Shown here piece by piece: positions 43,061 through 64,000 of a stretch of DNA of 64,000 nt (its first letter is position 1; each line of letters starts with the position of its first letter). The notes beneath the pieces were generated by a model. The model ran no database searches. It was not told where the DNA came from and saw only the letters and a list, made by a program, of their open reading frames with translations. Source of the stretch: Oscillospiraceae bacterium (GTDB taxonomy: Bacteria > Bacillota > Clostridia > Oscillospirales > Oscillospiraceae); assembly GCA_015067845.1 (NCBI GenBank), contig SVLT01000012.1:1-64000 (forward strand). The letters are read 5' to 3'. The position numbers were made by a program, and so were the translations under genes.

Positions 43061-43064
43061 ATGA
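42984..43064 (+). CDS. Possible 26-codon upstream ORF coupled to giant gene 1
   Basis: GTG at 42984 with AAAGGAA about 10 nt upstream opens a frame that ends at TGA 43062-43064, overlapping the gene 1 ATG (ATGA). The product would be short and has no recognisable motif. The equivalent GTG before gene 4 (63562) runs in frame into the protein instead. The difference traces to a seven-G run at 43047-43053, so this could be a leader ORF or a frame-shifted N-terminal extension. Confidence 0.35.
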   Translation: MKNDIASAACNEQGTVAYFSAGGEAK

Positions 43065-46000
43065 ACAAGTTTTGGAAACGCGGTATTTGTTTGCTTTTGG
43101 TCGTATGCACCCTGGCGGGCTATATTGTCCTGCCCGATGTGCCCGCGGCGAAGGCCGACACGGCAACAACAGACGCAAGCGTTGCGTTGGGGCCCAACCT
43201 GATTGCCAACAGTACGTTTGGCGAAATCAAATCCGTTACCACTTATCCTCAGTGCGCCATGCCGGCGAACTGGGCATTTGGCGGCGGAAAGGTTGCCGAC
43301 AAAGTATATCTGGCGGTTACCAATGAGTACGCCTACGATGGCGAGTACTCCATGAAGCTGAGCGATACGCTGACCAGTGCTGCGATCAGTGCATATCAGA
43401 ATGTTACAGATCTGACACCTGAGGACGCAGGCTTCAGCATCGTGCCTTCCTTCTTTGCAAGGGGTGAGGGTTCCGTTACTCTGACTTTGGAGTTCTATAA
43501 CAGCGATACCTCCTTTGTCACTTCCGGTGCCTCCAAGACCTTTATCAAGTCCCATTCGGACACCTTTACCATGAGCAATGATTGGAAGGAGTATTCCATT
43601 TCCAATGCAGTGATTCCCGAGGGTACGGAATCCGTCCGGTACAAGATCACCACCAAATCTGCCGATGTTTCGGAATTCTACTTCGACAGCGTTGCTCTGC
43701 ACGTAGCCGGTGAGGAGAGAAACCGTCTCGTCAACAACTCTTTCGAGACCCTGCCCTCCAAGACTCCCACCACTCAGAATATTGGCGGCATGGATACAAC
43801 CGGTTGGGGCAACTTGGACAGCTCCGCCATGTTCTCCGTCATTGCGGATGACCGTGACGAGAACGGCTTTGTTCTGCAGCTGGCAGACAACAGTGCTTCT
43901 GCCGGTGATTATGTCTATTATCAGGTGAAAGCCACCTCCGGCAAGTATACCCTGAAACTGGAATACAATACGGAAAATGCCCCCCAGATCATTGTGCGCT
44001 CCGGCGCTCATGACAGCACCGGCACACAGCTCCTCAGCCAGAAGCTGTCTGCTACAAACGGCACATGGAAATCCTACGAAACCACTTTGCAGGTTTCCGC
44101 GGATGCTCCACTGTTTGTGCTGATCAGCTCCGGCGCAGGCGAGAAGAATGAGGCTCTCTTCGATAATGTGTCCCTGCAAAAGCAGGGTGCATCCGACGAT
44201 GATGACATCTATGTCCCCGAGGGCAACCTGCTCACCAACGGTACCTTCGAAAAAGAGGTCTCCGGTGAGGTCGTTGAAAACAAAGACGGCTGGAAGGGCT
44301 GGAAAGAACCCTTCTCTTCTCTCGTTCCGGAGGAAGGTAAGGAAGGGAACTTTGTCGTAAAATGCGACGACCAGTCGACCACCGGCGGCGTCAATGTGTA
44401 TTACACAATGACCATTCCAAAGGCCGGTAAGTATACCATTAAGTTCGATTACAAGGGTGCGTTTTCTTACAGCGAGGTTAAGCTGATCCTGCGTCAGGGA
44501 TCCCTGTACGGCAATGAGAATAATGTGGAGCAAAACGTAATCAGCAAAACCTCCTGGCCCACGGATACCTGGAAGACTTATGAGTCGACTTTCGAAATCA
44601 TGGATGCCGGCGTAACTGTCTACATCATTATCAGCACAGGCAGTGGCACGTTGGGCACAGCCTACCTGGATAACTTCTACTTCTCCAAGATCGCAGACGA
44701 TGTTGAGGAGGAAGAAGGCGGTACGGTTGCTCCCGAGGATGTGATCAAGGTCCCCGAGGAAAACCTGGTTCACAACCCCAAGTTTGAGATGACCGTTTAC
44801 AGCTACCGCACACCGGTGGCTGCTGATCAAGCACCCAATGGCTGGACTCTGGAAACCAAGGACACCGGCGCGCAGCTGTTCAAGACCAATGTTGAGAAAT
44901 ACAAGGGTCAATGGACTGCACAGTTCGTTGATAATTCCAACAAGGGAAGCGTCAAGCTGTCCACCAAGGTGGATAACATCCAGGCAGGGGAGAAGTATAC
45001 CTACAGCTATGCCCGTATCGGCTCCGGCAAGCTTGCAATGGTCATTCGCTTCTACAATGAAGCAGGCAGACTGCTGCAGGAAGTGTCCGATGCTCAGGCC
45101 GGCTTCAGCACCTGGAGAGAAAAGCAGACAACCATCGCAGCACCTGCCGGCGCATCCTATGCCGTGGTGTCTCTGGAAACAAAGGCGACGGACAAGTGCG
45201 ACATGTATGTGGACGCGCTGACCTTCTTCCTGACTGACGATGAAAGCAAGACCAACCTGCTGCCCAATGCATCCTTCGAGGAGTACCCCGAGACAGTTGA
45301 CGATATCCTGATCTCCGTGAATAACACCTCCACTATGGAAGGGTGGACCATCAGCGGCACAAAGTATGTTTCTATGGTGCAAACCGAAACCGCAATGGAT
45401 AAAGCTGCTGTGGGTAATTACATGATCAAAATCGACGACGATACTGACCAGGGTGGCGGCTCGGTATACTATAACGTAAAGGTTCAACCCGGCAAGAGAT
45501 ATACATTCAGCGCGATGGTCAAGGGCAAATTTGAAGCCGGTGCGCCTTCCATCCGTATGAACTATTACCAGGATGCGGATTGCACGATTCCGGCGTATAG
45601 CGGAAAATATTCGTACAAGGCCACCACTGCGACTTCTTCCGATGCCTATTGGAGCCGCGTCAGCGTGGGTGTTGTGGTTCCTGAAAACTGCACAACAGTC
45701 CGCGTGATGCTGAATACTTCCAATGCCGCCGTGGGTTGCGCATACTACGGTAATGTCAGCCTGGTGGAGGGCATCGATACCAAATTCCACAACCTGGACA
45801 TGGAAGATCTGGACGAGTCCGGCGCAGTGCAGAGCTGGGATTCCTACGAAGGCGGCAAGCTGTCTGCCTACACCAAGGATCCCATTGCCGGTAAGGTCTC
45901 TCTGGCAGTCAAGGACAACAGCCAGGCTGTTCAGCAGGGCGCCATCAGCAAGCTGACCGACCTGAGTGGCTATCAGATCGTGGGCTTCGACACCACCGGT

Positions 46001-49000
46001 CTGGTATATACCATCACTGCCAGAGTCAAGGACGCCAAGAACGTGAAAGCACAGTTTGAGGTGGTCTTCTACGGCAATGACTTCCAGCCCGTGCATACGG
46101 AAACCATTACCACCGACGGCAGCGGCAAGTGGCAGTTCCTGGTGGCGGTTGTGGATTTCCCGGCTAACTCTGCCTATGTAACCGTTGGCGTGAAGGTGGG
46201 TACGAACGCATCCGCTACCGGTACCGTCTATCTGGACGATGTCACCATGGTGGACGAATACACCCAGCTCATGGATGAAGCCTACGACTGGGATATCAAG
46301 TACAGCGAAGGCAACCGTCTGTTCTACAATGCTGAGGAGCTGGAGCAGATCAAAAAGTTTGCTTTCGATGACACCATCAACACCCTGGGCGTTTCCGGTG
46401 CAAACGCATACAGAAAACTGATCAAGAAGGCTGATCAATATATTGCGGAAAAGGGCTACTATGCCACATGGTCCGCCAGTGCCGATAACGACCGTGTGAC
46501 CAAATACTACGTCAACATGGAGCACATCCAGGACATCAGTGCTGATCCGCTGTTGGCCGATGTCCCCGGCGGCCGTAACTGGCCCTATCTGGAATCGATC
46601 GCAGGCACTCTGTGCGATAAGTTCCAGGCTGTGTCCCTGGCCTATGCCATCACCGGCGACACCAAGTATGCCGACAGAGCCATCGGCTGGATCATGGATC
46701 TGTGCGAATGGGAATACTGGGATGAAACCAAGTACTCCTGGCCCTGGGGCTATATCACCGGCATGGGCACTTCCCGTATGCTGATCGGTATCGCTACGGT
46801 CTATGACATGTGCTATGACCGCATGACTCAGGAGCAACGGGATATCGTTGCACAAAACATTATTTACAAGGGCCTGAAGCCTCTGTACCGTGAACTGAAC
46901 GGCACACACAGACTGGACCCCGACAACAAGTACATGACCCGTGCTGCCGCATGTATCCTCGGCGCTCTGGCAATCATCAACGAGGACAACAAGGATGAAG
47001 TGGGCAAGTACCTGGATCGCGGTTACGAGTTTACCAAGCTGTGCTTCGACAGAGGATACTACACCGCATACAATGAAGGCTATTCCTACGCAAGAGTTAC
47101 CTACGAAGAAACATTGGTTGCTCTGAACTGTGCTGCCCGTGTTACCGGCAGAAAGGGCATGATCGACCATCCCTACTTCACCGAAGTGTTTATTGACTGG
47201 GTCGCGGACTTCATGGGCCCCGGCAGCTCTCAGCTTCCTGTCATCAGTGACAGCTATCCCAACGTTTTGGCATCCACCATGCTGATCCTCAGCAGTGAGC
47301 TGGGAAGCGGCGAGGCTGCCTACTTCGTGCGGGAGACCGGTCTGGACGATGACCCGTTCATGACTCTGCTCTTTGCTAACAACAACCCGGAGATCGTCGA
47401 ACCGGACGAAAATGACTATGTGGTATATTCCGAACGGGTTGGTTACGGCGGTCTGCGTACCGGCTGGGACGATGGCGACCTGATGCTATACATCATCGGC
47501 AGCACCAGTGACAATGGCCACATCCAGTACGACCAGCTCAGCTTCTGTCTGTTCACCAACGGACGCTGGCCGGCAATGGATCCCGGCTACTCCAACCTGA
47601 CCGGCGACTTCCTGGAAGTGGAAGGCCACAGCACCATTGTTGTGGATGGCGTGGGTCAGAATGTGAGAGGCGTCGGCTCCCTGAGCCAGATCGTGGATTC
47701 TCAGCTGTACGGCCAGTTCTCCGGCAGTGCGCCCAATGCGTATATGGATGCTGACGAAGACGGAAAGCTGACAATTCCCAAGCTGACTCAGTTTGACCGC
47801 CATGCCATCATGCTGAACCATGGCGACAGACCCTACTACATCATCATCGACGAGCTGGCTTCCAATGAGGAGCACACGTTCGACTTCAACCTGAACACCG
47901 GTGGCTGGACGGATATTACCGTTGACGGCAAGCCCATGGCTGCCGGAGAGGTCGTCCAGGGCAATCGGGTTTCCATCCAGGGCTCTCAGGGTCTGATCTT
48001 TGCAGAGTTTGTCTCCAAGGATAAGATGAACATCGAGGGCAAGATGTACGATGAGAACGGCCCCCTGTTGCAGGCTGACAGCGGCAGCGGCAAGTCCAAG
48101 CAGTTCATGACCATCATCTCCAAGGAATACGGTCTGGAAACGGACGAGGAATACTCCTTCCTGCCTCTGCTGAAGACCCCCGACCTGTACACCTACAAGA
48201 CATCCTCCAAGGATAACGAGATCACCAAGTCCGTTAGCGCCAGCGGTAACGCACTGTTCTTCTTCCGCGGACACGCGGTGGGTGACTGGATCGAGCTGCC
48301 CTTCACTCTGAGCGAAAGCGGCACCTACAATCTGACCCTGAAAACCGCAAAGTCCTATAACTACGGCGTTTACAAGATCTACATTGACGGCGAGTATGTC
48401 AGCACCTATGACGGTGCCAACCCCAAGGTCTTCCTGTACTACCATGAGATGGGTGAAAAGACTCTGGAAGCCGGTGAACACACCCTGAAATTGGAGCTGG
48501 TTGGCTGCAATTCCATCACCGGAGATAAGCTGATCTCCTTTGCATCTCTCATCTTCGGCGAGGACCGTGAGCTGGCAGCAAGCCCCATCTACACCCAGCA
48601 GGTTTACGACACTGACAAGGTTCTGGGCGCAAAGATTTACCACAGCGAGAACAATTCCGACATCGTTCTGCTGAACAGAACCACCGGCAAGATCTCTGCC
48701 GGCGGCGTGACCACCAACGGCGAACAGGCTGTGATCATCGGCCTGATGGAAGACGGCTACATGGAAGGCTACACCGTGATCGCAGGCACATCCCTGGCGC
48801 TCAACGGCACGACTCTGATGAAGTCCTCCAGCGCGGCAACCGTTTCTGCGGATTACCGCGGCAAGGCAAAGTACGCCGTTACCACCGAAAAGAAGCAGAC
48901 CATCTCCTTCTACGCACCTTACGAGATCGTGGGCGCGTCCGTTGACGGTAAGGATGTGGAATGCAAGATCTCCGGCAATGTGGCATCCCTGACCGTTCCC

Positions 49001-49909
49001 GCCGGCACCCATACCGTGGCGCTGAAAGTAAAGGACGCCGTCGAGTACATGTGGGGCCACGAAAGCGGCTCCGGCAAGGCGATCTACAACGAGAACGGCG
49101 AGCTCACCTACAAGTACTGGAAGGACGTCGACGGTACCGAGTACCTGTTTGAGGACGGCCAGCTGAAGATCGACGCTTACTATGATCCGCTGACCAAGCT
49201 GCTGGTTCGTGAAGAGCTGTTGGAGAACGGCGATTGGCAGATCACCTACTACGATGCCGCCCGGTATGTCACCAAGATCGAGATCGAGCATACCAACGGC
49301 AACCTGACCACCATCGCCTATCAGAAGGACGGCAGCATTTCCACGACCATCACCGACAAGCGTGGCGACTACCTGGAAATGACCATGGATTACCCCGACG
49401 GCTCCAAGACCGTCGCTGAGTACCTGGATGACAAGACCGTCACCACCAAGTACGGCGCAAACGGCAATGCACTTTCCATTACCACCATGTACAACGACGG
49501 CAAGCGCATTGAGGAGACCTACGACGCAAGCGGTAAGCTGCTGAGCAAGATCACCCGCTACAAGGGCGGCAGCCGTGAAGAGACGGTCTACAATGCCGAT
49601 GGCAGCAGCGTTACTTCCATCTACACCGCAAACAAGCTGACGGGCCTCAAGACTGTCAATGCCGACGGCACCGCAGTTCTGGAAGAGTATTTGGAAAACG
49701 GTTCTGTCCGTGTGACCAAGTACGATGCCAGCGGCAATGTGACCGAAGTGACTGTTGACGGCGTGCTGGTCGTTGAAGAAGAGCCTGATGACAATACCTG
49801 GATCATCATTGTCATCGTGGCAGTCGCAGTCGTTGCTGTGGCAGTTCTCGTGATCGTCCTGGTGAAGATCAAGAAGAGAAACGCAAAAGAATCTGCAAGC
49901 GCAGAATGA
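43061..49909 (+). CDS. Giant surface-anchored heparinase II/III-like polysaccharide lyase 1
   Basis: 2282-aa secreted, membrane-anchored protein. Signal peptide 1-32 (cleavage after AKA). Six beta-sandwich, CBM-like modules begin N-L-(I/V/L)-x-N-x-(T/S)-F: about 46-216, 221-375, 388-545, 568-725, 732-905, 910-1068. A helical lyase domain (about 1075-1440) has candidate catalytic Asn1289 (DNKYMTR) and Tyr1341 (NEGYSY). The heparinase II/III beta domain (about 1452-1705) has GGLRTGW and His1487 in GHIQYDQLSF. Then a CBM6/35-like sandwich (about 1720-1835), a linker domain, YD-like repeats (about 2000-2235), one membrane helix (about 2246-2269) and a KIKKRNAK tail. It probably cleaves a uronic-acid polysaccharide at the cell surface; the substrate is unknown. 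Confidence 0.8.
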   Translation: MNKFWKRGICLLLVVCTLAGYIVLPDVPAAKADTATTDASVALGPNLIANSTFGEIKSVTTYPQCAMPANWAFGGGKVADKVYLAVTNEYAYDGEYSMKLSDTLTSAAISAYQNVTDLTPEDAGFSIVPSFFARGEGSVTLTLEFYNSDTSFVTSGASKTFIKSHSDTFTMSNDWKEYSISNAVIPEGTESVRYKITTKSADVSEFYFDSVALHVAGEERNRLVNNSFETLPSKTPTTQNIGGMDTTGWGNLDSSAMFSVIADDRDENGFVLQLADNSASAGDYVYYQVKATSGKYTLKLEYNTENAPQIIVRSGAHDSTGTQLLSQKLSATNGTWKSYETTLQVSADAPLFVLISSGAGEKNEALFDNVSLQKQGASDDDDIYVPEGNLLTNGTFEKEVSGEVVENKDGWKGWKEPFSSLVPEEGKEGNFVVKCDDQSTTGGVNVYYTMTIPKAGKYTIKFDYKGAFSYSEVKLILRQGSLYGNENNVEQNVISKTSWPTDTWKTYESTFEIMDAGVTVYIIISTGSGTLGTAYLDNFYFSKIADDVEEEEGGTVAPEDVIKVPEENLVHNPKFEMTVYSYRTPVAADQAPNGWTLETKDTGAQLFKTNVEKYKGQWTAQFVDNSNKGSVKLSTKVDNIQAGEKYTYSYARIGSGKLAMVIRFYNEAGRLLQEVSDAQAGFSTWREKQTTIAAPAGASYAVVSLETKATDKCDMYVDALTFFLTDDESKTNLLPNASFEEYPETVDDILISVNNTSTMEGWTISGTKYVSMVQTETAMDKAAVGNYMIKIDDDTDQGGGSVYYNVKVQPGKRYTFSAMVKGKFEAGAPSIRMNYYQDADCTIPAYSGKYSYKATTATSSDAYWSRVSVGVVVPENCTTVRVMLNTSNAAVGCAYYGNVSLVEGIDTKFHNLDMEDLDESGAVQSWDSYEGGKLSAYTKDPIAGKVSLAVKDNSQAVQQGAISKLTDLSGYQIVGFDTTGLVYTITARVKDAKNVKAQFEVVFYGNDFQPVHTETITTDGSGKWQFLVAVVDFPANSAYVTVGVKVGTNASATGTVYLDDVTMVDEYTQLMDEAYDWDIKYSEGNRLFYNAEELEQIKKFAFDDTINTLGVSGANAYRKLIKKADQYIAEKGYYATWSASADNDRVTKYYVNMEHIQDISADPLLADVPGGRNWPYLESIAGTLCDKFQAVSLAYAITGDTKYADRAIGWIMDLCEWEYWDETKYSWPWGYITGMGTSRMLIGIATVYDMCYDRMTQEQRDIVAQNIIYKGLKPLYRELNGTHRLDPDNKYMTRAAACILGALAIINEDNKDEVGKYLDRGYEFTKLCFDRGYYTAYNEGYSYARVTYEETLVALNCAARVTGRKGMIDHPYFTEVFIDWVADFMGPGSSQLPVISDSYPNVLASTMLILSSELGSGEAAYFVRETGLDDDPFMTLLFANNNPEIVEPDENDYVVYSERVGYGGLRTGWDDGDLMLYIIGSTSDNGHIQYDQLSFCLFTNGRWPAMDPGYSNLTGDFLEVEGHSTIVVDGVGQNVRGVGSLSQIVDSQLYGQFSGSAPNAYMDADEDGKLTIPKLTQFDRHAIMLNHGDRPYYIIIDELASNEEHTFDFNLNTGGWTDITVDGKPMAAGEVVQGNRVSIQGSQGLIFAEFVSKDKMNIEGKMYDENGPLLQADSGSGKSKQFMTIISKEYGLETDEEYSFLPLLKTPDLYTYKTSSKDNEITKSVSASGNALFFFRGHAVGDWIELPFTLSESGTYNLTLKTAKSYNYGVYKIYIDGEYVSTYDGANPKVFLYYHEMGEKTLEAGEHTLKLELVGCNSITGDKLISFASLIFGEDRELAASPIYTQQVYDTDKVLGAKIYHSENNSDIVLLNRTTGKISAGGVTTNGEQAVIIGLMEDGYMEGYTVIAGTSLALNGTTLMKSSSAATVSADYRGKAKYAVTTEKKQTISFYAPYEIVGASVDGKDVECKISGNVASLTVPAGTHTVALKVKDAVEYMWGHESGSGKAIYNENGELTYKYWKDVDGTEYLFEDGQLKIDAYYDPLTKLLVREELLENGDWQITYYDAARYVTKIEIEHTNGNLTTIAYQKDGSISTTITDKRGDYLEMTMDYPDGSKTVAEYLDDKTVTTKYGANGNALSITTMYNDGKRIEETYDASGKLLSKITRYKGGSREETVYNADGSSVTSIYTANKLTGLKTVNADGTAVLEEYLENGSVRVTKYDASGNVTEVTVDGVLVVEEEPDDNTWIIIVIVAVAVVAVAVLVIVLVKIKKRNAKESASAE

Positions 49910-49925
49910 TTCGAAGACCTAATTT

Positions 49926-49963
49926 AAAAAATCCCTGCCCCCATTATGGGGCAGGGATTTTTG
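49926..49963 (+). terminator. Rho-independent terminator after giant gene 1
   Basis: Stem AATCCCTGCCCC / GGGGCAGGGATT with a six-base loop and T-run, about 17 nt after the stop. It means gene 2 has its own promoter. Confidence 0.9.
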
Positions 49964-50038
49964 TTGTTGTATAGTAAAAAGGTTGACAAAAAAACAATAA
50001 TTAACTGCAATAATTTAATTGTTTTGTGCAAAAAATGC

Positions 50039-50292: not shown

Positions 50293-53200
50293 ATGAAAAA
50301 ACTGTCAATCCGCGCAATTTCCCTCGTGCTGTGCGTGGCCATGCTGGTGGGCTACATTGTCCTGCCGGATATGCCCGCGGCCCAGGCTGAGACTGAGGTT
50401 ACCACAACCGTCGGCCCCAACCTGATCGCAAACGGCACATTTGGTGGACAGGGTTCCTCTGTCACCACTTATCCGAAAATGGCAATGCCTGCTGGCTGGG
50501 CCATCGGCGGTAACACCAATGTTACAGATGTTGCATATCTGCAGGTTACCAATGCCTATGTCCAAAACGGCCAGTATGCCATGAAGCTTGTTGACGATTC
50601 TGCTGAGAAAGCGATCAGCGGATTCCAAAACATCACTGCCATCACACCCGATGATGCCGGTACGGGCTTTACTGCTTCCGTCTACCTTAAGGGTACCGGA
50701 AGCCTCCAGCTGGTAATGGAGTGTTACAGCAGTGACACGACCCTTACAACGGCAACCCTTATCAAATCCATTTCCAAGGCCATCACCCTGACCGACGAGT
50801 GGACGCAGTATACCCTTACCAAAGATATCCTCGATGGTACGGAAACTGTGCGGTTTAAGATCACCACCAAGAAGGCCGACATCACTGAGATGTACATCGA
50901 CAATGCATGGTTCTCTTTGGACGGTGTGAATACCAACATGCTCACCAACGAGTCCTTCGAGACTCTGCCTGATGCAACTCCTGAAATCTCCGGCTCCGCC
51001 GGCGGCGCAGATGCAACCGGCTGGGGCGGTCTGGCACCGGAGGATACCCAGATCTTCTCCATCGTTGCAGACGACCGTGATGCATCCAACATGGTTTTGA
51101 AGATGGTGGATGAGAGCACAGCTGCCGGCGATTATGTCTATTACAAGGTGCAGGCAACTGCCGGTACATACACCTTGAAGATGGACTACAATACCGCCAA
51201 TGCGCCTCAGATCATTGTGCGCTCCGGTGCATATGACAGCACCGGCACACAGCTGTTGCAGCAGAATCTGACCAGCACCAACGGTGCTTGGGGCTCCGGT
51301 GAACTGACTGTGGAAGTTCCCCAGGATGGCGATGTCTACATTCTGATCAACTCCACCAAGAGCACCACCAACACTGCTTACTTCGATAACATCTTCTTCG
51401 CAAAGGTTACCACCACCGGTGGCAACCAGGGCGGCAGCGAAGGCGGCAATGAGGGTGGCAGCACCACACCTGTCACCGGCAACCTGATCCCCAATGGTAC
51501 CTTCGGCACCACCGAGGCCGATACCTCCGGCTGGAACGGTCTGTCCGGATCCAAGGTGTTCTCTGTTATTGCTGACCCCGACAAGGCTGAAAACTTCATC
51601 CTGAAGATGGTGGATGAAAGCACAACCTCCGGCGGCTACATCTATCCCACTATTGAGGCGGCAGTGGGTGTCTACAAGCTGAAGCTGGAGTACAAGACTG
51701 ACGATGCACCTCAGGTTCTTGTGCGCGCCAATGCTGCCACAAGTGCAGGCGAACAGCTGTTGAAATACAACCTTCCTGCTACAAACGGCGCGTGGGCAAC
51801 CTACGAAACCACAATCACAGTAACCGAGGATATGGCCAACATCAATATCCTGCTGGTTGCCGGTGGTGCTACCGTATGTACCGCATACTTTGACAATATT
51901 TCCTTTGAGTTTGTCTCCGCCGGCGGCAACGAAGGCGGCGAAGGCGGCGAAGGCGGCGAAGGCGAAGGCGGCACTGTTGCTCCGGAAGACGTCATCAAGA
52001 TTCCCGAGCAGAACCTGCTGGGCAACCCCTTCTTCGAGCTGACCATGTACACCTATGTCACACCTCTGACTCCTGAGACTGCCCCCAACGGCTGGACTTT
52101 GGAAGTCGTGGGCACCGGTGTACAGGTGTTCAAGACCAATAAATCTGCCCATAAGGGCGAATGGTCCATCCAGGCTGTGGATACTTCCGCTACCGGATAC
52201 TTCAAGCTGTCCTACAAGGTGGAAAACATCGTAGCCGGTCAGGAATACCAGTACATTTACGCCCGTCAGGGCGAAGGCAGCCCCGGAATGTTCATTCGGT
52301 ACTACGATGCCGAGGGCAATCTGCTGCAGGAGTACAACAACTGTCAGTCCGGTTACAGCAACTGGCGTGAAAGCCGCAAGCTGGCTCTGGCACCGGAAGG
52401 CACTTCCTACGCAATCGTCTCTCTGGAGAGCAACGCAGCCAAGAAGTGCAACATGTATCTGGATCAGGTTTCCTTCTACTCCTCCGAAGATACTTTGACC
52501 AACCTGCTGACCAACCGTTCCTTCGAGGAATATCCCGAGGGCTTTGAGGATATCCTGGTCTCTGCCAAGAATGAGTCTACCCTGAAGGGTTGGACCATTG
52601 GCGCCGGCGCCGACCGGATCTCTCTGATCGCCACCGAGACCGAGCTGGATAAGTCCTCCGTCGGCAACTACATGATCAAGATAGAAGATGAGCTGGCCAC
52701 CAGCGGCGCGAACATGTACTATACCATGGATATTGAGCCCGGCAAGACCTATTCATACAGCGCAATGGTCCGGGGCGAATACACCGTCAACAGCCCCAGT
52801 ATCCGTCTTGCTTTCTATTACGACGAAGACTGCAAGCAGCCCGCATATATCGGCTCTAAGCAGTACAAGTCCCAGTCCATTTCTTGTTCCAACGAATTCT
52901 GGACCCGTGGTACTGTCTCCGCGACAGCACCTGAGGGTGCGGTCAAGGCCCGTCTTTACCTGATCTCCGCCAATGCCGCTGTGGGTACTGCTTATTTTGG
53001 CAACCTGGCTCTGGTTGAGGGTGTTCCCACCAAGTTCGCCAACCTGGACTTTGAAGATCTGAATGAAAGCGGCGCAATGCTGAAGTGGAACTCCTATGAA
53101 GATGCCAAGATCGCTCCTTACACCAAGGATTCCTTTGCCGGCAAGATGTCCCTGCAGATCAAGGACAACAGCGAAGCTGCTCAGCAGGGCGCTGTGAGCT

Positions 53201-56200: not shown

Positions 56201-57150
56201 AGAGCGTCAAGTACAGCGTTGACGGCAACATTGCCAAGGTCTCCGTTCCCGCCGGCACCCACACTGTGGCTCTGCAGGTCAAGGAAGCTGTTGAGTATCT
56301 GTGGGGTCACGAAAGCGGCGAAGGCAAGGCTCTGTACAACGAGAACGGCGAGATGATCTACAAGTACTGGAAGGACATCGACGGTACTGAGTACCTGTTC
56401 GAAGACGGCCAGGTCAAGATCAACGCCTACTACGATGCCAAGACCAAGGTTCTGATCCGTGAGGAACTGTTGGAAGACGGCGCATGGCAGGTTACTACCT
56501 ACGACCTGATCGGCAACATCGCTAAGATCGAGATCCAACACACCAACGGCAATGTGACCCTGATCAAGTATCAGACCGACGGCAGCATCTCCACCACCGT
56601 CACCGACAGCAAGGGCGACAATCTGGAAATGATCATGGAATACAAGGACGGCTCCAAGACTGTTGCTCAGTATCTGGACGACAAGACTGTTACCACCAAG
56701 TACGGTGCAAACGGCAATGTGCTGAGTGTTACCACAATGTACAACGATGGCAGACGTGTGGAAGAGACCTACGACGAAAACGGCAAGTTGCTGAGCAAGA
56801 TCACTCGCTCCAAGGGCGGCAACCGTGAAGAAGTGGTTTACAATGCCGACGGCAGTGTGGTGACTACCATCTACACCGCCAACAAGCTGAGCTCCATTCA
56901 GACGGTCAACGCTGACGGCACTTCTGTCCTGGAAGAGCATCTGGAAGACGGCTCTGTCCGTGTGACCAAGTACGACAAGGACGGCAATGTGACCGAAGTG
57001 ACCATCGACGGCAAGCTGGTGGAAGAGGAGAAGGCTGACAACTCCTGGATCATCATTGTCATCGTGGCTGTGGCTGTTGTTGCCGCGGCAGCTCTCGTGA
57101 TCGTCCTGGTGAAGATCAAGAAGAAAAACGGCGCAGCATCTGCTGAATAA
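50293..57150 (+). CDS. Giant surface-anchored heparinase II/III-like polysaccharide lyase 2
   Basis: 2285-aa paralogue of gene 1 with the same order of parts. Signal peptide 1-32 (cleavage after AQA). Six CBM-like modules: about 43-210, 216-372, 397-541, 573-730, 737-912, 917-1070; the second and third look like a recent duplication and are separated by a glycine/serine-rich linker (375-391), with a Gly-Glu linker at 543-560. Lyase core about 1080-1445 with His1293-Asn1294 (HNKYMAR) and Tyr1346 (NEGYSY); beta domain with His1493 and His1495 (HGHYDQLSF), the only complete HxH in the array. CBM6/35-like domain about 1725-1840, YD-like repeats about 2005-2240, membrane helix about 2251-2273, KIKKKNG tail. 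It is the best candidate for a fully active lyase. Confidence 0.82.
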   Translation: MKKLSIRAISLVLCVAMLVGYIVLPDMPAAQAETEVTTTVGPNLIANGTFGGQGSSVTTYPKMAMPAGWAIGGNTNVTDVAYLQVTNAYVQNGQYAMKLVDDSAEKAISGFQNITAITPDDAGTGFTASVYLKGTGSLQLVMECYSSDTTLTTATLIKSISKAITLTDEWTQYTLTKDILDGTETVRFKITTKKADITEMYIDNAWFSLDGVNTNMLTNESFETLPDATPEISGSAGGADATGWGGLAPEDTQIFSIVADDRDASNMVLKMVDESTAAGDYVYYKVQATAGTYTLKMDYNTANAPQIIVRSGAYDSTGTQLLQQNLTSTNGAWGSGELTVEVPQDGDVYILINSTKSTTNTAYFDNIFFAKVTTTGGNQGGSEGGNEGGSTTPVTGNLIPNGTFGTTEADTSGWNGLSGSKVFSVIADPDKAENFILKMVDESTTSGGYIYPTIEAAVGVYKLKLEYKTDDAPQVLVRANAATSAGEQLLKYNLPATNGAWATYETTITVTEDMANINILLVAGGATVCTAYFDNISFEFVSAGGNEGGEGGEGGEGEGGTVAPEDVIKIPEQNLLGNPFFELTMYTYVTPLTPETAPNGWTLEVVGTGVQVFKTNKSAHKGEWSIQAVDTSATGYFKLSYKVENIVAGQEYQYIYARQGEGSPGMFIRYYDAEGNLLQEYNNCQSGYSNWRESRKLALAPEGTSYAIVSLESNAAKKCNMYLDQVSFYSSEDTLTNLLTNRSFEEYPEGFEDILVSAKNESTLKGWTIGAGADRISLIATETELDKSSVGNYMIKIEDELATSGANMYYTMDIEPGKTYSYSAMVRGEYTVNSPSIRLAFYYDEDCKQPAYIGSKQYKSQSISCSNEFWTRGTVSATAPEGAVKARLYLISANAAVGTAYFGNLALVEGVPTKFANLDFEDLNESGAMLKWNSYEDAKIAPYTKDSFAGKMSLQIKDNSEAAQQGAVSLMTDLTGYQKSGLSVAQLMYYLTARIKDAKNVKAQLSIVYYDNGFKEVHRDTVTSAGTGKWQFLRLDSQHAANAAYAQILVTVGENASAKGTIYVDDITIGGEYADLREEAYDWQIKEDEGNRLYFTDEELAAIREFAKDDTLNAFGASGANAYRGLIKEADGYMIATHYYASWDASPDGDRVTLYKVNLDHIQDYSTDPLLADVPGGRNWPYGEGISNGIYTRVSTVAMAYALTGDARYAQKAIGWAMDICGWEYWCDTKYCWASNYNGTLGAPRIMRSVAVVYDMCYDQLTEEQKDIMIQNIIHKGMIPLSQDLDIPSRTFHNKYMARCVGIITAGAAIINKENKEEVGRYMDKAYAFCTAFIDNRYETDDNEGYSYTRMSTDDMLVAMDCARRATGRNGLLEHPYFTEVLIDWVCDFVAPITHEWPVFGDSYASGFFKPTMLILNRTFGIGEAGYFLQTVGMGNENFNTLIYGAYDPVITPPDENDYVVYAERVGYGGLRTGWEDDDLVFYIIGNNSKLGHGHYDQLSFMMTTDGFWPALDPGYSNSNVGCFDEQQGHNIMLVDGQWQTLRGEGKLSPIVDGQLYGQFEGSAPGAYLGADENGKYTVPLLTQWDRNAIMINHGDRPYYIVIDEIADENEHVYDFNLNTGGWTDITVDGKPMTEGVNKGNKVAVYGNQGYLFVEYVSKEKMNIEAVTYEDGGPVIQADSGSKKSAQYMTILTKPYGIEMDEKYSFLPLLNTPELVSYKTSSYDATIIKSVNGGGTPLFFFRGEKAGDWIELPFTVETAGNYELILKTCKSYNYGKYKIFIDGEEVGEYDGYDIKVYALDLSLGKRDIEAGDHVLRLELVGVNPKSIGALISVASITFATEREMPDAPIYTQEVYDTDKVLGAKIYHTENNYDIVLHNRTTGKITAGGVTTNGQQAVIIGQMADGYLEGFTVVSGTTLTFNGKTLVKASSAATVSADFRGKAQYAVTTEKDQSISLYVPYEVVGATVDGKSVKYSVDGNIAKVSVPAGTHTVALQVKEAVEYLWGHESGEGKALYNENGEMIYKYWKDIDGTEYLFEDGQVKINAYYDAKTKVLIREELLEDGAWQVTTYDLIGNIAKIEIQHTNGNVTLIKYQTDGSISTTVTDSKGDNLEMIMEYKDGSKTVAQYLDDKTVTTKYGANGNVLSVTTMYNDGRRVEETYDENGKLLSKITRSKGGNREEVVYNADGSVVTTIYTANKLSSIQTVNADGTSVLEEHLEDGSVRVTKYDKDGNVTEVTIDGKLVEEEKADNSWIIIVIVAVAVVAAAALVIVLVKIKKKNGAASAE
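51921..51972 (+). repeat. In-frame 9-bp tandem repeat coding a Gly-Glu linker
   Basis: Repeats of GGCGGCGAA encode GGE units in the linker between modules 3 and 4 of giant protein 2. Copy number can change without breaking the frame, so linker length may vary between strains. A related but less regular Gly/Ser/Asn linker is coded at about 51417-51465. Confidence 0.8.
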
Positions 57151-57173
57151 TCTGAAAACATATCTAAGTACAG

Positions 57174-57202
57174 TACCCCCACGCTCCCGGAGTGTGGGGG
57201 TA
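57174..57202 (+). terminator. Rho-independent terminator after giant gene 2
   Basis: Stem TACCCCCACGCTC / GAGTGTGGGGGTA with G-T pairing and a short loop, followed by TTTCTT. In the gap 57151-57604 the part 57203-57381 shows nothing I recognise; the rest is the control region of gene 3. Confidence 0.82.
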
Positions 57203-57381
57203 TTTCTTGTATAGGGGATATTTTTGCATCAAAAATTTACCGGCACAACAGCGCCCAAGGCTCCCTTGTGCAAAGAGAACCCTCATGTTTAATCCCAATT
57301 TGCAAGATGGGAGTGACACTGGAAAAATGCGCGATATGTGTAATATTCGCTTTTTTGCGATGCTTCACACCGTGCGTAAGA

Positions 57382-57414
57382 GCAAAATTGTCCAAAAACA
57401 TAGCATTTTTGTCC
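57382..57414 (+). promoter_or_regulatory. AraC-type direct repeat upstream of giant gene 3
   Basis: GCAAAATTGTCC (57382-57393) and GCATTTTTGTCC (57403-57414), start-to-start 21 nt. The second half-site ends in the TTGTCC that serves as the -35 box, the usual position for an AraC-type activator touching RNA polymerase. Confidence 0.7.
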
Positions 57415-57449
57415 ATTGTTTTACCCCTGTTATGATGATATCATAATAA
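57409..57449 (+). promoter_or_regulatory. Promoter and palindrome of giant gene 3
   Basis: TTGTCC (57409-57414), 16-nt spacer, TATGAT (57431-57436) with an upstream TG. Overlapping it is TTATGATGATATCATAATAA (57430-57449), an inverted repeat with one mismatched pair. The core ATGATATCAT and following AATAA recur before gene 4 at the same distance from the AraC box. A shifted -10 (CATAAT, 57442) is an alternative. Confidence 0.6.
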
Positions 57450-57454
57450 CTGAA

Positions 57455-57604
57455 TTTGACTGGAGTTTGGTAGGCAACCGGCTCTGATTTCAAATGAATT
57501 GCAATAGAAAGGAACATCGTAACGAAAGATATAGCATAGTCCAGACTCCATAACTGGTGAAGGATTATACCGTTCTTCCGGCGAGTAGGGTGAAGCAAGT
57601 GAAG
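57455..57604 (+). ncRNA. Structured 5' leader of giant gene 3
   Basis: Hairpin I (57463-57484: GAG/CTC, bulged T, TTGG/CCGG, 7-base loop TAGGCAA) matches gene 1 in shape with G-T instead of G-C pairs. AGAAAGGAAC (57509-57518) is shared with the other leaders. Near 57541 CCAGACTCC can pair with GGAGTTTGG at 57462 as an alternative long-range stem, or CCAG with CTGG locally. Switching between these folds is possible but untested. Confidence 0.5.
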
Positions 57605-60600
57605 ATGATTTGGAAACGCAGTATCAGTTTGCTCTTGGTGTTGTGCACATTGGTGGGCTATATTGTCCTGCCGGAAGTGCCTTCGGCAAACGCTGAGACA
57701 GAATCTGTTTCGACTACCAGTCCGAACCTGGTTGCTAACGGCACATTTGAGGCTCAGTCCGGCGACACTGTCCAGGCCAATAAAGATGGCTGGGGCGGAT
57801 TGACCGATATCTGGTCCGTTGTACCCGAGGAAGGCAAGGAGAACAATTATGTTGCTCAGGTGGTGGACGGGAGTGCCACTGCCGGTAAATATATCTTTTA
57901 TAGCTTTCCGGTAGAGGCTGGCTGTGCCTATACCTTTAAGATTGACTACAAGGGTATGTATTCTGCCAAAAGCCCTGTTATTTATATTCGCAAGGATGCG
58001 GTAAACGGCACCAATTTTCACAAAAAGGTTCTTGATGCTGTTGCTGATTCCTGGCAGACCTATGAGACAACCGTAGAAGTGCCTGCGGATGCCGCGCAGG
58101 TGTTCATTTTGCTGGCATCCCCGTCGGATGGCGTGGGTACGGCCTGCTTTGACAATGTGTACTTCGCAAAATATGTCGAAACCGATGACGATGAAGAGGA
58201 TGAAGGCGGCGAAGGTGGAGAAGTGGTTGCGCCGGATAACGAAATTGTGATCCCTGAGGCAAATCTGCTTCGCAATCCCTTCTTTGAGCTGACCCTATAC
58301 AAATACTGCACACCGCTGGATGCTGCGGTTGCTCCTGACGGCTGGACTGTGGAAGCCACCGGCTCCAATGCTAAGGTATTCAAGTCCAGTGTGGCTCTGT
58401 ACGAAGGGGAATGGAGTGTCCGGCTTATGGACAACTCCACCACGGGAAGCTTAAAGCTCTCCACCAAGATCGAGAACATCCAACCCGGAACGGAGTACAT
58501 CTTCGGCTATTACCGCTACGGTGAGGGCGCACCCAAGTACTATGTGCGCTACTACGATGCGGACGGTAAGTTGTTGGAGGAATACTACAACGGCCAGAGC
58601 GGTTACGATTACTGGCGTTGGAGCTGGAAGGCAGCCTTGGCGCCGGAGGGTGCCACCTATGCCATCGTGTCCTTTGAGACTACGGCAGCCCAGAAATGCG
58701 ACATGCATGTGGACAGCCTTCGTTTCTATGCCAACGACGATGAGACAAAGACCAACCTGCTGACCAACGCTTCCTTTGAAAAATATCCGGAAGGTATGCA
58801 GGATATATGCGTCGCCATAGAGAATGAGGCTACCACCAAGGGGTGGAAAATGTCCAACACTGTTACTCTGGTGGAAACCGAAACCGAGATGGACAAGGCT
58901 GTTGCCGGCAACTACATGCTGTATCTGAACGATGATTCCACAAAAACGGGCCTGAATGCTTACTATACCCTGGATGTGGAACCGGGAAAAACCTACGCAT
59001 TCAGCGGTATGTTCCGGGGTGAATACACGGAGGGCAACGCAAACATCCGGATGTCCTTTTATCAGGATGAGGATTGCCAGGTTCCGGCAATGATCGGTAC
59101 TACAAACTACAAAGCGTGGACGATTGGCTGTTCTCCCGAGCACTGGTCCCGTGCAAGCGGCTCCGCAACAGCGCCTGAAAGCGCGACCAAACTTCGGGTT
59201 TACATTGTCAGCAACGCGGCTGCCAATGGTTGGACCTATTTTAGCGATTTGTCCGTGGTCGAGGATGTTACAACTAAGTTTGCAAACCTGGACTTTGAAG
59301 ATCTGGATGAGTCCGGTGCGATGGATAAGTGGTTTGCCTATGAAAACGGAACACTGTCCGCCAATGACAAGAATGTGTTCGCAGGCAAGCTGTCCCTGCA
59401 AGTCAAGGATAACAGCGAGGCCGTCCAGCAGGGCGCCATCAGCAAGCTGACGGACCTGGGCGGTTATCAGGTCGAGGGTTATTCCTCAGAAAACATGATA
59501 CACAGCCTCGCTGCCAGAGTTAAAGACAGCAAAACTGCCAAGGCACAGATTACCATGGTCTACTATGACAGTAGCTTTGAAGAGGTAGGCAGACAGTCCC
59601 TGACCTCCGCAGGGACCGGCAAGTGGCAGTTTCTGGAACTGTATGCCGATGTGCCGGCCAGTGCGGCCTATGCCAAGATCCTGCTGACCGTGGGCGAGGA
59701 TGCCGCCGCCAAGGGTACTGTCTACTTTGACGATATCACCCTCAGCAGCGAATACTGCCAGTACCTTGACGAAGCCTACGACTGGGAAATCAAGCTTGAC
59801 GAGGGCAACCGCCTGTACTTCACCGAGGAGGAACTGGCTGGCATCAAGGAATTCGCCAAGGACGATACCGTTAATATCTTCGGTGTCTCCGGTGCGGATG
59901 CATACAGAGATATCATTAAACAGGCCAATGTTTATTTGAACGAGAAGGTTTTTCATATCCGATTCAGCGATACAACCGGAACCCGTAAGGAATACTTTAA
60001 TGTTAATATGGAGCATATTCAGGACTGTAGTGCTGACCCACTGCTGATCGACGCTCCCGATGTCCGGAACTGGCCTTATCTGGAAGGCATCTCGGACGGC
60101 TTGCGCGATCGTTTCCAGACCGTGGCTATGGCCTATGCCCTTACCGGTGACACCAGATATGCTGATAAGTGTATCAGCTGGGCTATGGATATGTGTGAAT
60201 GGGAATACTGGTGTGAAACCAAGTACTCATGGGCTATGGGCAATGTGAATTCCACCCTGTGCGTGCCCCGTATCGTCATCGGTATGGCTACCATCTACGA
60301 TATGTGCTATGACCGGATGACCCCGGAACAGCGTACACTTATTGTGCAGAACATGATCCACAAGGGCTTGAAGCCCCTGTACATAGAAACGACCGGCCCC
60401 AACAGACTGTTATTCCACAATAAGGGTATGATGCGCTGTACTGCCTTGCTGATCGGTGCATTGGCCATCATCAATGAAGACAACAAGGCAGAGGTGGGCA
60501 AGTATCTGGATCGGGCCTATGCTTATGGCAAGGCATTCCTGGATGCGCGGTATACTTCTGCCGATAATGAGGGCTACTCCTACACCAATGTGTCCGTTGA

Positions 60601-63361
60601 AGACTTGCTCATTGGTATGGATTGCTCCACCCGCGTTACCGGCCGCGAAGGCTTGCTGAATCACCCCTATTTCAGCGAAGTTCTGGTGGACTGGGTGGTG
60701 GACTTCCTGGCACCCGGTCAATACGACCTGCCGTCCTTCTCGGACTGCCACGGCAGCCTTGCTATGTTCAAGAGCACCATGATGATCCTGAACAAGACCA
60801 AGGGAAATGGCAAGGCAGGTTACTACCTGCTGAAAACGGGTCTGGATCAGGATCCCTTCAAGGTGCTGCTCTACGCCAACTACGAACCTGTGATTACCGA
60901 ACCCACCGAGAATGACTATGTTGTTTTCATGGAGCAGGTAGGTTACGGCGGTTTGCGTACCGGTTGGGAGGACGGCGAACTGATGTTCTACATCATGGGC
61001 AACAAAAACGAATCCAGCCACAGTAACTATGACCAGCTCAGCTTCATGATTTCTACTGACAGACAGTGGGTAGCAGTCGACCCCGGTTATTCCAACCTGT
61101 GGGAAGGCTTTGCCGAGCAGGAGGGCCACAACACCCTGATCGTGGATGGGGAAGGCCAGAGCGTGAAGGGTACAGCGTCCCTGACACCCGTTGTGGATTC
61201 CCAGTTGTACGGCCAGTTCTCCGGCAGCGCACCCGGTGCTTACGGCGAAGGGGTGCTGACCCAGTTCGACCGCCATGCCATCATGATCAATCACAATGAC
61301 AGACCCTACTACATCGTCATTGACGAAGTGGCTTCCGATGAGGAGCGTGTTTTCGACTTCAACCTGAATACCGGCGGTTGGTCGGCTGTTGCAGTCGACG
61401 GAAAGCCTTTGGGCGACGAGGTCGTCCAGGGCAACAAGGTTTCCATCTACGGCAACAATGGCTACTTCCTGGTGGAATTTGTCAGCAAGAGCAAGCTCAA
61501 TATCGAGGCCAAGATGTATGAGGACGGCGGCCCCGTGCTGCAAGCAGACAACGGCAGCCAGAAGTCCACGCAGTTTATGACCATCCTGAACAAGCCCTAC
61601 GGCGTGGAAACGGATGAAACCTATTACTTCCTGCGTCTGCTGAAAACACCGGAATTGGTCGCCTATAAGACCTCTTCCATGGATTCCGTCATCACCAAAT
61701 CCGCCAATGCGCAGGGCACGCCCGTGTACTTCTTCCGCGGACAGAGCGAGGGTGACTGGATCGAGCTGCCCTTCACCGTTTCGGAGACCGGTACCTATGA
61801 TCTGGTTCTGAAAATGGCCAAGTCCTATAACTACGGTATTTATAAGATCTACATCGACGGTGAATACCAGCTCACCTATGACGGCTACAATGAAAAGGTT
61901 TTTGCCTATGATATCAACCTGGGTAAGCAGGAAGTCGCCGCCGGTGAGCATATTCTGAGACTGGAACTGGTGGGCATGAATCCCAAAAGTATCGGTGTGC
62001 TGATCTCCGTAGCTTCCATTGCCTTCGGTACAGACCGTGGTCTGCCTGAGAACTCCATCTACACCGAGGAAGTTTACGACACCGACAAGGTTCTGGGCGC
62101 GAAGATCCACCACAGCGATAACAATGTGGACATCGTTCTGCACAACAGAGGAACCGGCAAGATCACCGCAGGCGGTGTGACCACCAACGGTGAACAAACC
62201 ACCATTATTGGTTTGATGGAAGACGGTTACATGGAAGGCTTTACCCTGGTCGCAGGCACATCCCTGGTGTTCAACGGAAAGACTTTGATGAAGTCTTCCT
62301 CTGCCGCAACCGTTTCTGCGGACTTCCGTGGCAAGGCGAAGTATGCGGTCACCACAGAGAAGGCGCAGTCCATCTCCCTGTACGCTCCCTACGAGATCGT
62401 GGGTGCAACTGTGGACGGTGAGAGCGTCAAGTACAGCGTTGATGGCAATGTGGCCAAGATTTCTGTGCCTGCCGGTACCCACACTGTTGAGTTGAAGGTC
62501 ATCGGCGCGGTTGAGTATCTCTGGGGCGATGAAAGCGGCTCCGGCAAGGCTCTGTACGACGAAAACGGTGAGATGATCTACAAGTACTGGAAGGACATCG
62601 ACGGTACCGAGTACCTGTACGAGGACGGCCAGCTGAAGATCAACGCCTATTACGATGTGAAGACCAAGCTGCTGGTTCGTGAGGAGCTGTTGGACGACGA
62701 TTCCTGGCAGATCACCTACTACAACATTTTGGGCGATGTGAACAAGATCGAGATCCAGCATCCCAACGGCAACCTGACCACCGTCCAGTATCAGACTGAC
62801 GGCAGTATTTCCACTCTGGTTACTGACAAGCGGGGCGAGTATCTGGAAATGACCATGGAATACCAGGACGGTTCCAAGACCGTTGCCCAGTATCTGGACG
62901 ACAAGACTGTCACCACCAAGTATGGCGCAAACGGCAATGTGCTGGCGGTTACCACCATGTACAACGATGGCAGACGCATTGAGGAAACTTACGATGAAAA
63001 CGGTAAGCTGCTCAGTAAGATCACCCGCCTGAAAGGCGGCAACAGGGAAGAAGTGGTCTACAATGCCGACGGCAGCGTGGTTACTTCTGCATACACCGCG
63101 GGTAAGCTGACCTCTGTGCAGACGGTCAATGCTGACGGAACTTCTGTGCTGGAGGAGTATTTGGAAGATGGCTCTGTTCGCGTGACCAAGTACGACAAAG
63201 ACGGCAATGTGACCGAGATCACCATCGACGGCAAGCTGGTGGAAGAGGAGAAGGCTGACAACTCCTGGATCATCATTGTTGTAATCGTTGCAGTCGCAGT
63301 GATCGGTGCAGCAGCCCTCGTGATCGTTCTGGTGAAGATCAAGAAAAGAAACGCAAAATAA
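57605..63361 (+). CDS. Giant surface-anchored heparinase II/III-like polysaccharide lyase 3
   Basis: 1918-aa paralogue counted from ATG 57605; GTG starts at 57599 and 57557 are in frame and possible. Signal peptide 1-30 (cleavage after ANA). Only four CBM-like modules (about 40-190, 221-376, 384-555, 560-716): the first two modules of genes 1 and 2 are absent. An acidic linker follows the first module. Lyase core about 722-1080 with His938-Asn939 (HNKGMMR) and Tyr991 (NEGYSY); beta domain with His1139 in SSHSNYDQLSF, the second histidine replaced by Asn. CBM6/35-like, YD-like repeats, membrane helix (about 1888-1912) and KIKKRNAK tail as in the others. Confidence 0.82.
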   Translation: MIWKRSISLLLVLCTLVGYIVLPEVPSANAETESVSTTSPNLVANGTFEAQSGDTVQANKDGWGGLTDIWSVVPEEGKENNYVAQVVDGSATAGKYIFYSFPVEAGCAYTFKIDYKGMYSAKSPVIYIRKDAVNGTNFHKKVLDAVADSWQTYETTVEVPADAAQVFILLASPSDGVGTACFDNVYFAKYVETDDDEEDEGGEGGEVVAPDNEIVIPEANLLRNPFFELTLYKYCTPLDAAVAPDGWTVEATGSNAKVFKSSVALYEGEWSVRLMDNSTTGSLKLSTKIENIQPGTEYIFGYYRYGEGAPKYYVRYYDADGKLLEEYYNGQSGYDYWRWSWKAALAPEGATYAIVSFETTAAQKCDMHVDSLRFYANDDETKTNLLTNASFEKYPEGMQDICVAIENEATTKGWKMSNTVTLVETETEMDKAVAGNYMLYLNDDSTKTGLNAYYTLDVEPGKTYAFSGMFRGEYTEGNANIRMSFYQDEDCQVPAMIGTTNYKAWTIGCSPEHWSRASGSATAPESATKLRVYIVSNAAANGWTYFSDLSVVEDVTTKFANLDFEDLDESGAMDKWFAYENGTLSANDKNVFAGKLSLQVKDNSEAVQQGAISKLTDLGGYQVEGYSSENMIHSLAARVKDSKTAKAQITMVYYDSSFEEVGRQSLTSAGTGKWQFLELYADVPASAAYAKILLTVGEDAAAKGTVYFDDITLSSEYCQYLDEAYDWEIKLDEGNRLYFTEEELAGIKEFAKDDTVNIFGVSGADAYRDIIKQANVYLNEKVFHIRFSDTTGTRKEYFNVNMEHIQDCSADPLLIDAPDVRNWPYLEGISDGLRDRFQTVAMAYALTGDTRYADKCISWAMDMCEWEYWCETKYSWAMGNVNSTLCVPRIVIGMATIYDMCYDRMTPEQRTLIVQNMIHKGLKPLYIETTGPNRLLFHNKGMMRCTALLIGALAIINEDNKAEVGKYLDRAYAYGKAFLDARYTSADNEGYSYTNVSVEDLLIGMDCSTRVTGREGLLNHPYFSEVLVDWVVDFLAPGQYDLPSFSDCHGSLAMFKSTMMILNKTKGNGKAGYYLLKTGLDQDPFKVLLYANYEPVITEPTENDYVVFMEQVGYGGLRTGWEDGELMFYIMGNKNESSHSNYDQLSFMISTDRQWVAVDPGYSNLWEGFAEQEGHNTLIVDGEGQSVKGTASLTPVVDSQLYGQFSGSAPGAYGEGVLTQFDRHAIMINHNDRPYYIVIDEVASDEERVFDFNLNTGGWSAVAVDGKPLGDEVVQGNKVSIYGNNGYFLVEFVSKSKLNIEAKMYEDGGPVLQADNGSQKSTQFMTILNKPYGVETDETYYFLRLLKTPELVAYKTSSMDSVITKSANAQGTPVYFFRGQSEGDWIELPFTVSETGTYDLVLKMAKSYNYGIYKIYIDGEYQLTYDGYNEKVFAYDINLGKQEVAAGEHILRLELVGMNPKSIGVLISVASIAFGTDRGLPENSIYTEEVYDTDKVLGAKIHHSDNNVDIVLHNRGTGKITAGGVTTNGEQTTIIGLMEDGYMEGFTLVAGTSLVFNGKTLMKSSSAATVSADFRGKAKYAVTTEKAQSISLYAPYEIVGATVDGESVKYSVDGNVAKISVPAGTHTVELKVIGAVEYLWGDESGSGKALYDENGEMIYKYWKDIDGTEYLYEDGQLKINAYYDVKTKLLVREELLDDDSWQITYYNILGDVNKIEIQHPNGNLTTVQYQTDGSISTLVTDKRGEYLEMTMEYQDGSKTVAQYLDDKTVTTKYGANGNVLAVTTMYNDGRRIEETYDENGKLLSKITRLKGGNREEVVYNADGSVVTSAYTAGKLTSVQTVNADGTSVLEEYLEDGSVRVTKYDKDGNVTEITIDGKLVEEEKADNSWIIIVVIVAVAVIGAAALVIVLVKIKKRNAK

Positions 63362-63372
63362 TCCATTTAGAG

Positions 63373-63405
63373 TATCCCTGTCCCATCCCGGGACAGGGAT
63401 ATTTT
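63373..63405 (+). terminator. Rho-independent terminator after giant gene 3
   Basis: 12-base perfect stem (TATCCCTGTCCC / GGGACAGGGATA), five-base loop, TTTTG tail, 12 nt after the stop. Confidence 0.9.
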
Positions 63406-63420
63406 GTCTTCTGTGAGGGT

Positions 63421-63476
63421 GCAAAAATCGTCCCTAAATACAGCATTTTTGGTTATTGCTTTTCGATTTTTTTGAT
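63421..63476 (+). promoter_or_regulatory. AraC-type repeat and promoter of giant gene 4
   Basis: GCAAAAATCGTCC (63421-63433) and GCATTTTTGGTT (63443-63454); the GTCC/GGTT ends are 21 nt apart. The second half-site overlaps TTGGTT as -35, followed after 16 nt by TTTGAT (63471-63476). ATGATATCAT and AATAA follow, as before gene 3. Confidence 0.6.
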
Positions 63477-63496
63477 GATATCATAATAATCAGAAT

Positions 63497-63633
63497 GGAA
63501 TGAGTTTCGGTTGACTGCCGGGCTACGGTTTCAAAATTGCAACAGAAAGGAATCCCGATAAGTGAAAATGCGTGGTTTCTGCGCTCTGCAAGGGGCAGGG
63601 AACAGCTCCATTTTTCACCGGGTTGGACGCAAT
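63497..63633 (+). ncRNA. Structured 5' leader of giant gene 4
   Basis: Hairpin I (63503-63524: AG/CT, bulged T, TTCGG/CCGGG, 7-base loop TTGACTG), AGAAAGGAATCCCGATAAGTG-like start region (GTG at 63562), and hairpin II (63583-63596: GCTCT/GGGGC, loop GCAA, flanked by GTTTC/GGGAAC). Stem bases differ from gene 1 while pairing is kept. Confidence 0.5.
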
Positions 63634-64000
63634 ATGAACAGAATTTGGAAACGCGGTATTAGTTTGCTTTTGGTCGTGTGCACATTGGTGGGGTATATTG
63701 TCCTGCCGGAGGTACCTGCGGCCAAGGCCGAGGTGCAAAGCCAGGAAGTGACCGCCACAAACGTCATCACGAACGGTACCTTTGAAAAACAACTTTCTGA
63801 CGGAACGGTTCAGGGAAATGTAGCGGGCTGGCAAGGCGTGGAAGACATCTGGACCATCGCAGCTGAAGAAGGCAACGAAAGCAATTATGTTGCCAAGGTG
63901 GATGATAACAGCTCTACCGGCGGTCGATATATCTATTACCGCACAACCGTAGAGCCGGGCTGCACCTATACCTTTTCCATCGACTATAAGGGTACATACA
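63634..64000 (+). CDS. Giant surface lyase 4, N-terminal fragment (runs off the window)
   Basis: The first 122 residues of a fourth paralogue. Signal peptide about 1-32 (MNRIWKRGISLLLVVCTLVG..., cleavage after AKA), then a CBM-like module beginning NVITNGTF, closest to the first module of protein 3 (shared DIW, EEG, NYVA and TF-IDYKG). This suggests a four-module layout, though the rest is outside the window. A GTG at 63562 gives a 24-residue in-frame extension with a better ribosome binding site (AAAGGAA) than the ATG at 63634, so the start is uncertain. Confidence 0.8.
   Translation, partial: MNRIWKRGISLLLVVCTLVGYIVLPEVPAAKAEVQSQEVTATNVITNGTFEKQLSDGTVQGNVAGWQGVEDIWTIAAEEGNESNYVAKVDDNSSTGGRYIYYRTTVEPGCTYTFSIDYKGTY

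What the first reader, a model, noticed from the sequence alone, without database searches (positions are those of the whole stretch)
43061..64000. Tandem array of four giant, membrane-anchored heparinase II/III-like proteins
Seen: three complete paralogues of 1918-2285 residues and a fourth starting at the right edge, all with signal peptide, module row, lyase-like core, YD-like stalk and C-terminal membrane helix, each with its own terminator and promoter. Known: heparinase II/III-type lyases are usually 600-900 residues, and Gram-positive loci rarely carry several full-length giant copies in a row. Inference: a surface battery for binding and cutting uronic-acid polysaccharides that feeds the LplB/LplC-type importer at 33797-37414. 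I know of no described system with this layout.
Basis: partly seen in the sequence, partly recalled or inferred. Interest (0 to 1): 0.85.

Follow-up and report, generated by a model that had tools for sequence, protein, structure and literature searches.

The report
Tandem battery of giant surface lyases
This DNA holds four giant sister genes in a row (the last cut off by the end of the sequence), whose proteins are predicted to be anchored on the outside of a bacterial cell and likely cut acidic, uronic-acid-rich sugar chains; the enzyme type is known, but a row of such giants that differ at their predicted active sites was not found described.

The parts
43061..49909 (+). Giant 1 (P0001, 2282 aa): signal peptide, binding modules, lyase-like core, CBM84/CBM35-like module, repeat stalk, membrane helix
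46256..48181 (+). Core of giant 1 (toroid + beta-sandwich); position 426 equivalent is Gln, residue before the Asn is Asp
50293..57150 (+). Giant 2 (P0002, 2285 aa); the only one of this genome's six aligned cores with the full His-x-His-x-Asp motif
53506..55431 (+). Core of giant 2
57605..63361 (+). Giant 3 (P0003; 1918 aa from the ATG; ORF open from GTG at 57557)
   Evidence: P0008 is 1918 aa
59750..61651 (+). Core of giant 3, modelled with AlphaFold2 together with the next part
61652..62035 (+). [not shown]
62477..63181 (+). Repeat stalk of giant 3 (YD-like repeats, weak)
63257..63358 (+). C-terminal hydrophobic (membrane) helix and basic tail of giant 3
   Evidence: sequence
63635..64000 (+). 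Start of giant 4 (P0006); runs on to the contig end at 67612; complete elsewhere as P0014, 2089 aa
42620..42655 (+). Direct repeat TTGTCC-15-TTGTCC before giant 1 (21-bp spacing; AraC-type operator candidate)
57383..57418 (+). Same direct repeat before giant 3
49927..49962 (+). Terminator-like hairpin after giant 1
57174..57202 (+). Terminator-like hairpin after giant 2
63373..63401 (+). Terminator-like hairpin after giant 3
33797..35694 (+).
35723..37414 (+). Likely lipoprotein binding protein of the importer (DUF3502 match below cut-off)
37499..39727 (+). AraC-type regulator, 742 aa, with a hydrophobic N-terminal stretch (likely membrane-bound)
39746..40399 (+). DUF624 (YesL-like) membrane protein
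40383..42554 (+). P0044, 723 aa, no Pfam or NCBIfam match; predicted fold of GH138/GH115/GH67 uronidases

Best explanation
The row encodes sister proteins that are predicted to be held on the outside of the cell by a C-terminal membrane helix and likely cut uronic-acid polysaccharides by beta-elimination, as PL35 lyases do. Shown here: the tandem row, the shared plan, the predicted fold and the conserved Tyr and His. Inferred steps: N-terminal CBM4/9-type modules and a CBM84/CBM35-like module hold an acidic polysaccharide; the invariant Asn, perhaps with the residue before it, neutralises the uronate carboxylate; His takes the C5 proton and Tyr gives one to the leaving sugar. The copies likely share the work, since they differ in binding modules, in the residue before the Asn (His or Asp) and in one metal ligand (His, Asn or Gln). 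The adjacent AraC-type regulator likely switches on at least copies 1 and 3; the importer and the uronidase-like protein likely handle the products. The substrate is open; lightly or unsulfated uronate chains are favoured.
Confidence: 0.65

Rival explanations
1. Mostly binding proteins: the copies are surface glycan-capturing proteins that keep the lyase fold, and most have lost full catalysis.
For: Metal-ligand His is Asn or Gln in 5 of 6 copies of this genome; binding modules make up much of each chain; one outside relative (P0022) has Thr for the catalytic His.
Against: Tyr and Glu are kept in 57 of 57 rows and His424 in 56 of 57; a dead fold would be expected to lose them. Asn or Gln can still bind a metal (general knowledge).
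Confidence: 0.16
2. C5-epimerases of polymer uronates rather than lyases.
Confidence: 0.07
3. The rows are ordinary neutral tandem duplicates of no special joint function.
For: Tandem duplication is common; the copies of G011 and of G071 each form one clade.
Against: The five full copies are 53-73% identical in the toroid yet open, with active-site residues kept; copy 1 pairs with a protein of another assembly (N93k_c, 100/100), so it is older than that split; several lineages amplified separately.
Confidence: 0.1

Closest known systems
PL35 GAGases (GAGase II 8KHV, GAGase VII 8KHW) and PL35 chondroitinase 9O3Q
   Same: DUF4962 plus Hepar_II_III plan, best fold match, Tyr/His and most metal ligands
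   Different: GAGases I-VIII are 624-648 aa (PMC11262172 passages); here 1918-2285 aa with binding modules, stalk and membrane helix, in tandem; metal-ligand His replaced in 5 of 6 copies
Dp0100, multimodular PL39 alginate lyase of Defluviitalea phaphyphila
   Different: Other PL family; catalytic domain comes first, then FN3, CBM35, CBM32 and CBM96 modules; no tandem row in the passages read
Heparinase II (PL21), heparinase III (PL12), PL15 and PL17 alginate lyases
   Different: Weaker by sequence: heparinase II E 0.003 (core profile), PL15 3a0o E 0.011 (P0001 alone); PL12 and PL17 not listed
Human dermatan sulfate epimerase 1
   Same: Fold and DUF4962
   Different: Epimerase; no comparable modules or array
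yes-type rhamnogalacturonan operon of Bacillus subtilis (recalled, no call)
   Same: Permease pair, binding protein, AraC regulator and YesL/DUF624 side by side
   Different: Its lyases belong to PL11 and are not giant (recalled)

Membership tests
PL35 | DUF4962 and Hepar_II_III_C domains | tested here: met
   both over cut-off in P0003 (35.1 of 28.7; 34.4 of 24). In P0001 only Hepar passes (26.1; DUF4962 27.8), in P0002 only DUF4962 (32.9; Hepar 19.4)
PL35 | toroid plus antiparallel beta-sandwich, nearest to PL35 structures | tested here: met
   (model of copy 3)
PL35 | catalytic Tyr and His | tested here: met
   both in 6 of 6 copies of this genome
PL35 | catalytic Asn (carboxylate neutraliser) | tested here: inconclusive
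   An Asn in 6 of 6 copies, but the profile alignment sets it opposite Asn191, not Asn192
PL35 | Mn site His403, Asp405, Asp421, His457 | tested here: inconclusive
   the two Asp in 6 of 6; His457 equivalent in the 5 of 5 that reach it; His403 equivalent in 1 of 6 only
PL35 | assignment by CAZy's own models | not tested
   No CAZy library among the tools
PL35 | lyase activity on GAGs | not testable with these tools
   needs the bench
PL21 heparinase II (HepB) | NCBIfam equivalog cut-off | tested here: not met
   HepHepsulflyase 25.7 bits against 600, P0002 only
PL39 (Dp0100) | closest fold and sequence | tested here: inconclusive
   [not shown]
GH67/GH115/GH138 (P0044) | uronidase fold | tested here: inconclusive
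   [not shown]

The most novel reading that the evidence does not exclude
A lineage of gut Clostridia runs a surface rack of giant PL35-like lyases against acidic glycans: a row amplified several times over in separate species, in which one copy keeps the canonical metal site and the others carry Asn/Gln-metal and His/Asp subsite variants, so that one anchored array cuts different uronate linkages of one complex polysaccharide under one AraC-type switch. The Asn/Gln-metal copies would be a new catalytic type within the heparinase II/III clan.
Probability: 0.25. Interest if true: 0.7.

Novelty: new variant of a known kind. Interest (0 to 1): 0.55.

Why it matters
If the copies are active, the row is a natural test of how one lyase scaffold is retuned: six sister active sites in one genome, with swaps at or next to places (metal ligand, carboxylate neutraliser) where mutagenesis of PL35 enzymes abolished or changed activity. 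It also suggests a Gram-positive way of breaking acidic glycans on the cell surface with repeated giant enzymes.

Tried and rejected
Not supported: a phage or plasmid origin (no relative confirmed in the viral contigs; one place with 22% identity over 66% of the core in 72,556 plasmid records). Rejected: that the array ends at four copies. The stub of a giant's C terminus at the end of contig C13 agrees with P0014 in 42 of 43 places, and P0014 is 100% identical to copy 4 over its 1326 known residues. C1 and C13 are thus likely neighbours, giving five in a row; but the stub stops where P0014 runs on for seven more residues, so this is inference. Rejected: the C42 fragment as a real short gene; it shares an exact 127-base suffix with the end of C1, which looks like an assembly artefact, though its N-terminal part is a further copy. 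The assembly has 8% contamination, so copies on other contigs could belong to a close relative.

Weak or negative: GH88 only below cut-off; sulfatase only one partial match; GH123 in 3 of 6 genomes with a giant match, this one included (2 matches, not on the giants' contigs), and next to a giant pair only in G068; no Rfam match in 33000-64000; consensus promoter and terminator scan of 42500-43100 near shuffle level. The first genome-contig scan (P0003) found no relative, the second (alignment A3) gave 8 loci. The order scan scored at most 3 candidates a genome, so its copy counts are lower bounds. PL12, PL15, PL17 and PL39 are not among the PDB matches of the core profile, though PL15 matches P0001 at E 0.011; this does not exclude kinship. 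Gene conversion was not tested formally; third-position identity is somewhat higher in the stalk than in the core. One search stopped with a script error after printing the module identities; the rest ran.

Rows dropped: one search listed 62 rows, of which two fell out by coverage (60 kept); three more (a duplicate from G011, P0008 as duplicate of P0003, partial P0023) were left out of the 57-row tree. Two row pairs in it (P0014 and copy 4; P0016 and copy 2) are the same protein over their overlap, so counts of 57 include them twice. N93k, E25k and N61k name proteins that share a longest-contig length; that they sit on one contig is inferred from this.

Literature searches for the layout: (listings; nothing describing it; one search found no paper). 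The library lacks most subscription papers. Of PMC12088678, PMC11262172, PMC8006597, PMC10881899 and PMC9971899 I saw passages only.

Full report
What is there. The window's right third carries three complete paralogous genes and the start of a fourth on the + strand, with 383, 454 (to the ATG at 57605) and 273 bases between them. A terminator-like hairpin follows each of the first three. The genome (2.22 Mb, 52 contigs, 95% complete, 8% contamination) holds three more full or partial copies: one in C13, one alone in C2, and an N-terminal part at the end of C42, making seven. Contig C1 ends inside copy 4; contig C13 ends in the last 43 codons of a giant that lies just upstream of the C13 copy. 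Protein P0014 from another assembly (2089 aa) is identical to copy 4 over its known 1326 residues, and agrees with that stub in 42 of 43 places, after which the two differ. So the row likely has five members; this is inferred.

Relatives and evolution. The core region has 38 relatives among 4927 candidates in a 5.8-billion-protein set. In the genus, 6 of 136 genomes match at E 0.001 or better; one (G112) only weakly, and the others (G000, G011, G068, G070, G071) have 6 (without the C42 fragment), 4, 6, 2 and 4 cores. In four of these five there are same-strand rows, 13 of 22 cores. In the order, 4 of 394 sampled genomes match at 1e-20, this one included; the relatives in other families are open frames of 961-1174 aa. 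Contig lengths tie G011, G068, G070 and G071 to records titled Oscillospiraceae bacterium SIG509, SIG501, SIG493 and SIG486; two further loci come from deer cecum. The tree (40 of 53 inner branches starred) puts the four copies of G071 and the four of G011 each in one clade, while those of G068 fall in two places; in this lineage copy 1 pairs with a protein of another assembly (N93k_c, 100/100) and copies C2 and 2 share a supported group of five with N93k_b. So amplification happened separately in several lineages, and in this one before it parted from that relative.

How it likely works. A surface-tethered lyase binds an acidic polysaccharide with its outer modules, cuts it by beta-elimination and releases unsaturated oligosaccharides for import. 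Shown: row, modules, predicted fold, conserved residues. Inferred: surface display, activity, division of labour, control by the AraC protein, import. Not shown: the substrate. A single partial sulfatase match speaks against reliance on heavily sulfated chains; a GH88 step was found only below cut-off, which weakens the pathway.

Judgement. The enzyme kind is known; a giant multimodular lyase of this fold is known too (Dp0100). The tandem rows of giants, their repeated separate amplification and the swaps at a metal ligand were not found in my searches. New variant of a known kind.

Noticed in passing
window 40383-42554: P0044: 723-aa protein without Pfam or NCBIfam match but with at least 2114 relatives; GH138/GH115/GH67-like predicted fold with several invariant Glu. 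A candidate unnamed glycosidase family.
   Followed up: partly
L004:9889-11508 (end of G000 C42): Giant N terminus fused in frame to a 127-base exact copy of the end of contig C1: likely an assembly artefact of the repeats.
   Followed up: yes
L007 (C49), L006 (C41), L005 (C12): Other long frames of this genome (2203, 2076, 1057 and a 164-aa piece at a contig end), three of the four contigs' frames matching the giants' N-terminal stretches at 27-40%; the two in C49 are neighbours with near-identical starts.
   Followed up: no
window 42687-42728: Perfect 16-nt inverted repeat between the putative operator and giant 1; possible attenuator or leader terminator.
   Followed up: no
window 23202-28269: Neighbouring HMGL-like, GntR/FCD, aconitase-type and isocitrate/isopropylmalate dehydrogenase-type genes: an unassigned operon that looks like 2-oxoacid chain elongation.
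   Followed up: no
window 3-1067: Serine recombinase with resolvase, recombinase and zinc-ribbon domains at the left edge.
   Followed up: no
G112: A genome of the same genus with 16 GH123-type matches, 14 of them partial, in open frames of 579 to 3134 aa.
   Followed up: no
P0022: A 2464-aa relative with Thr in place of the catalytic His: a likely inactive member.
   Followed up: no
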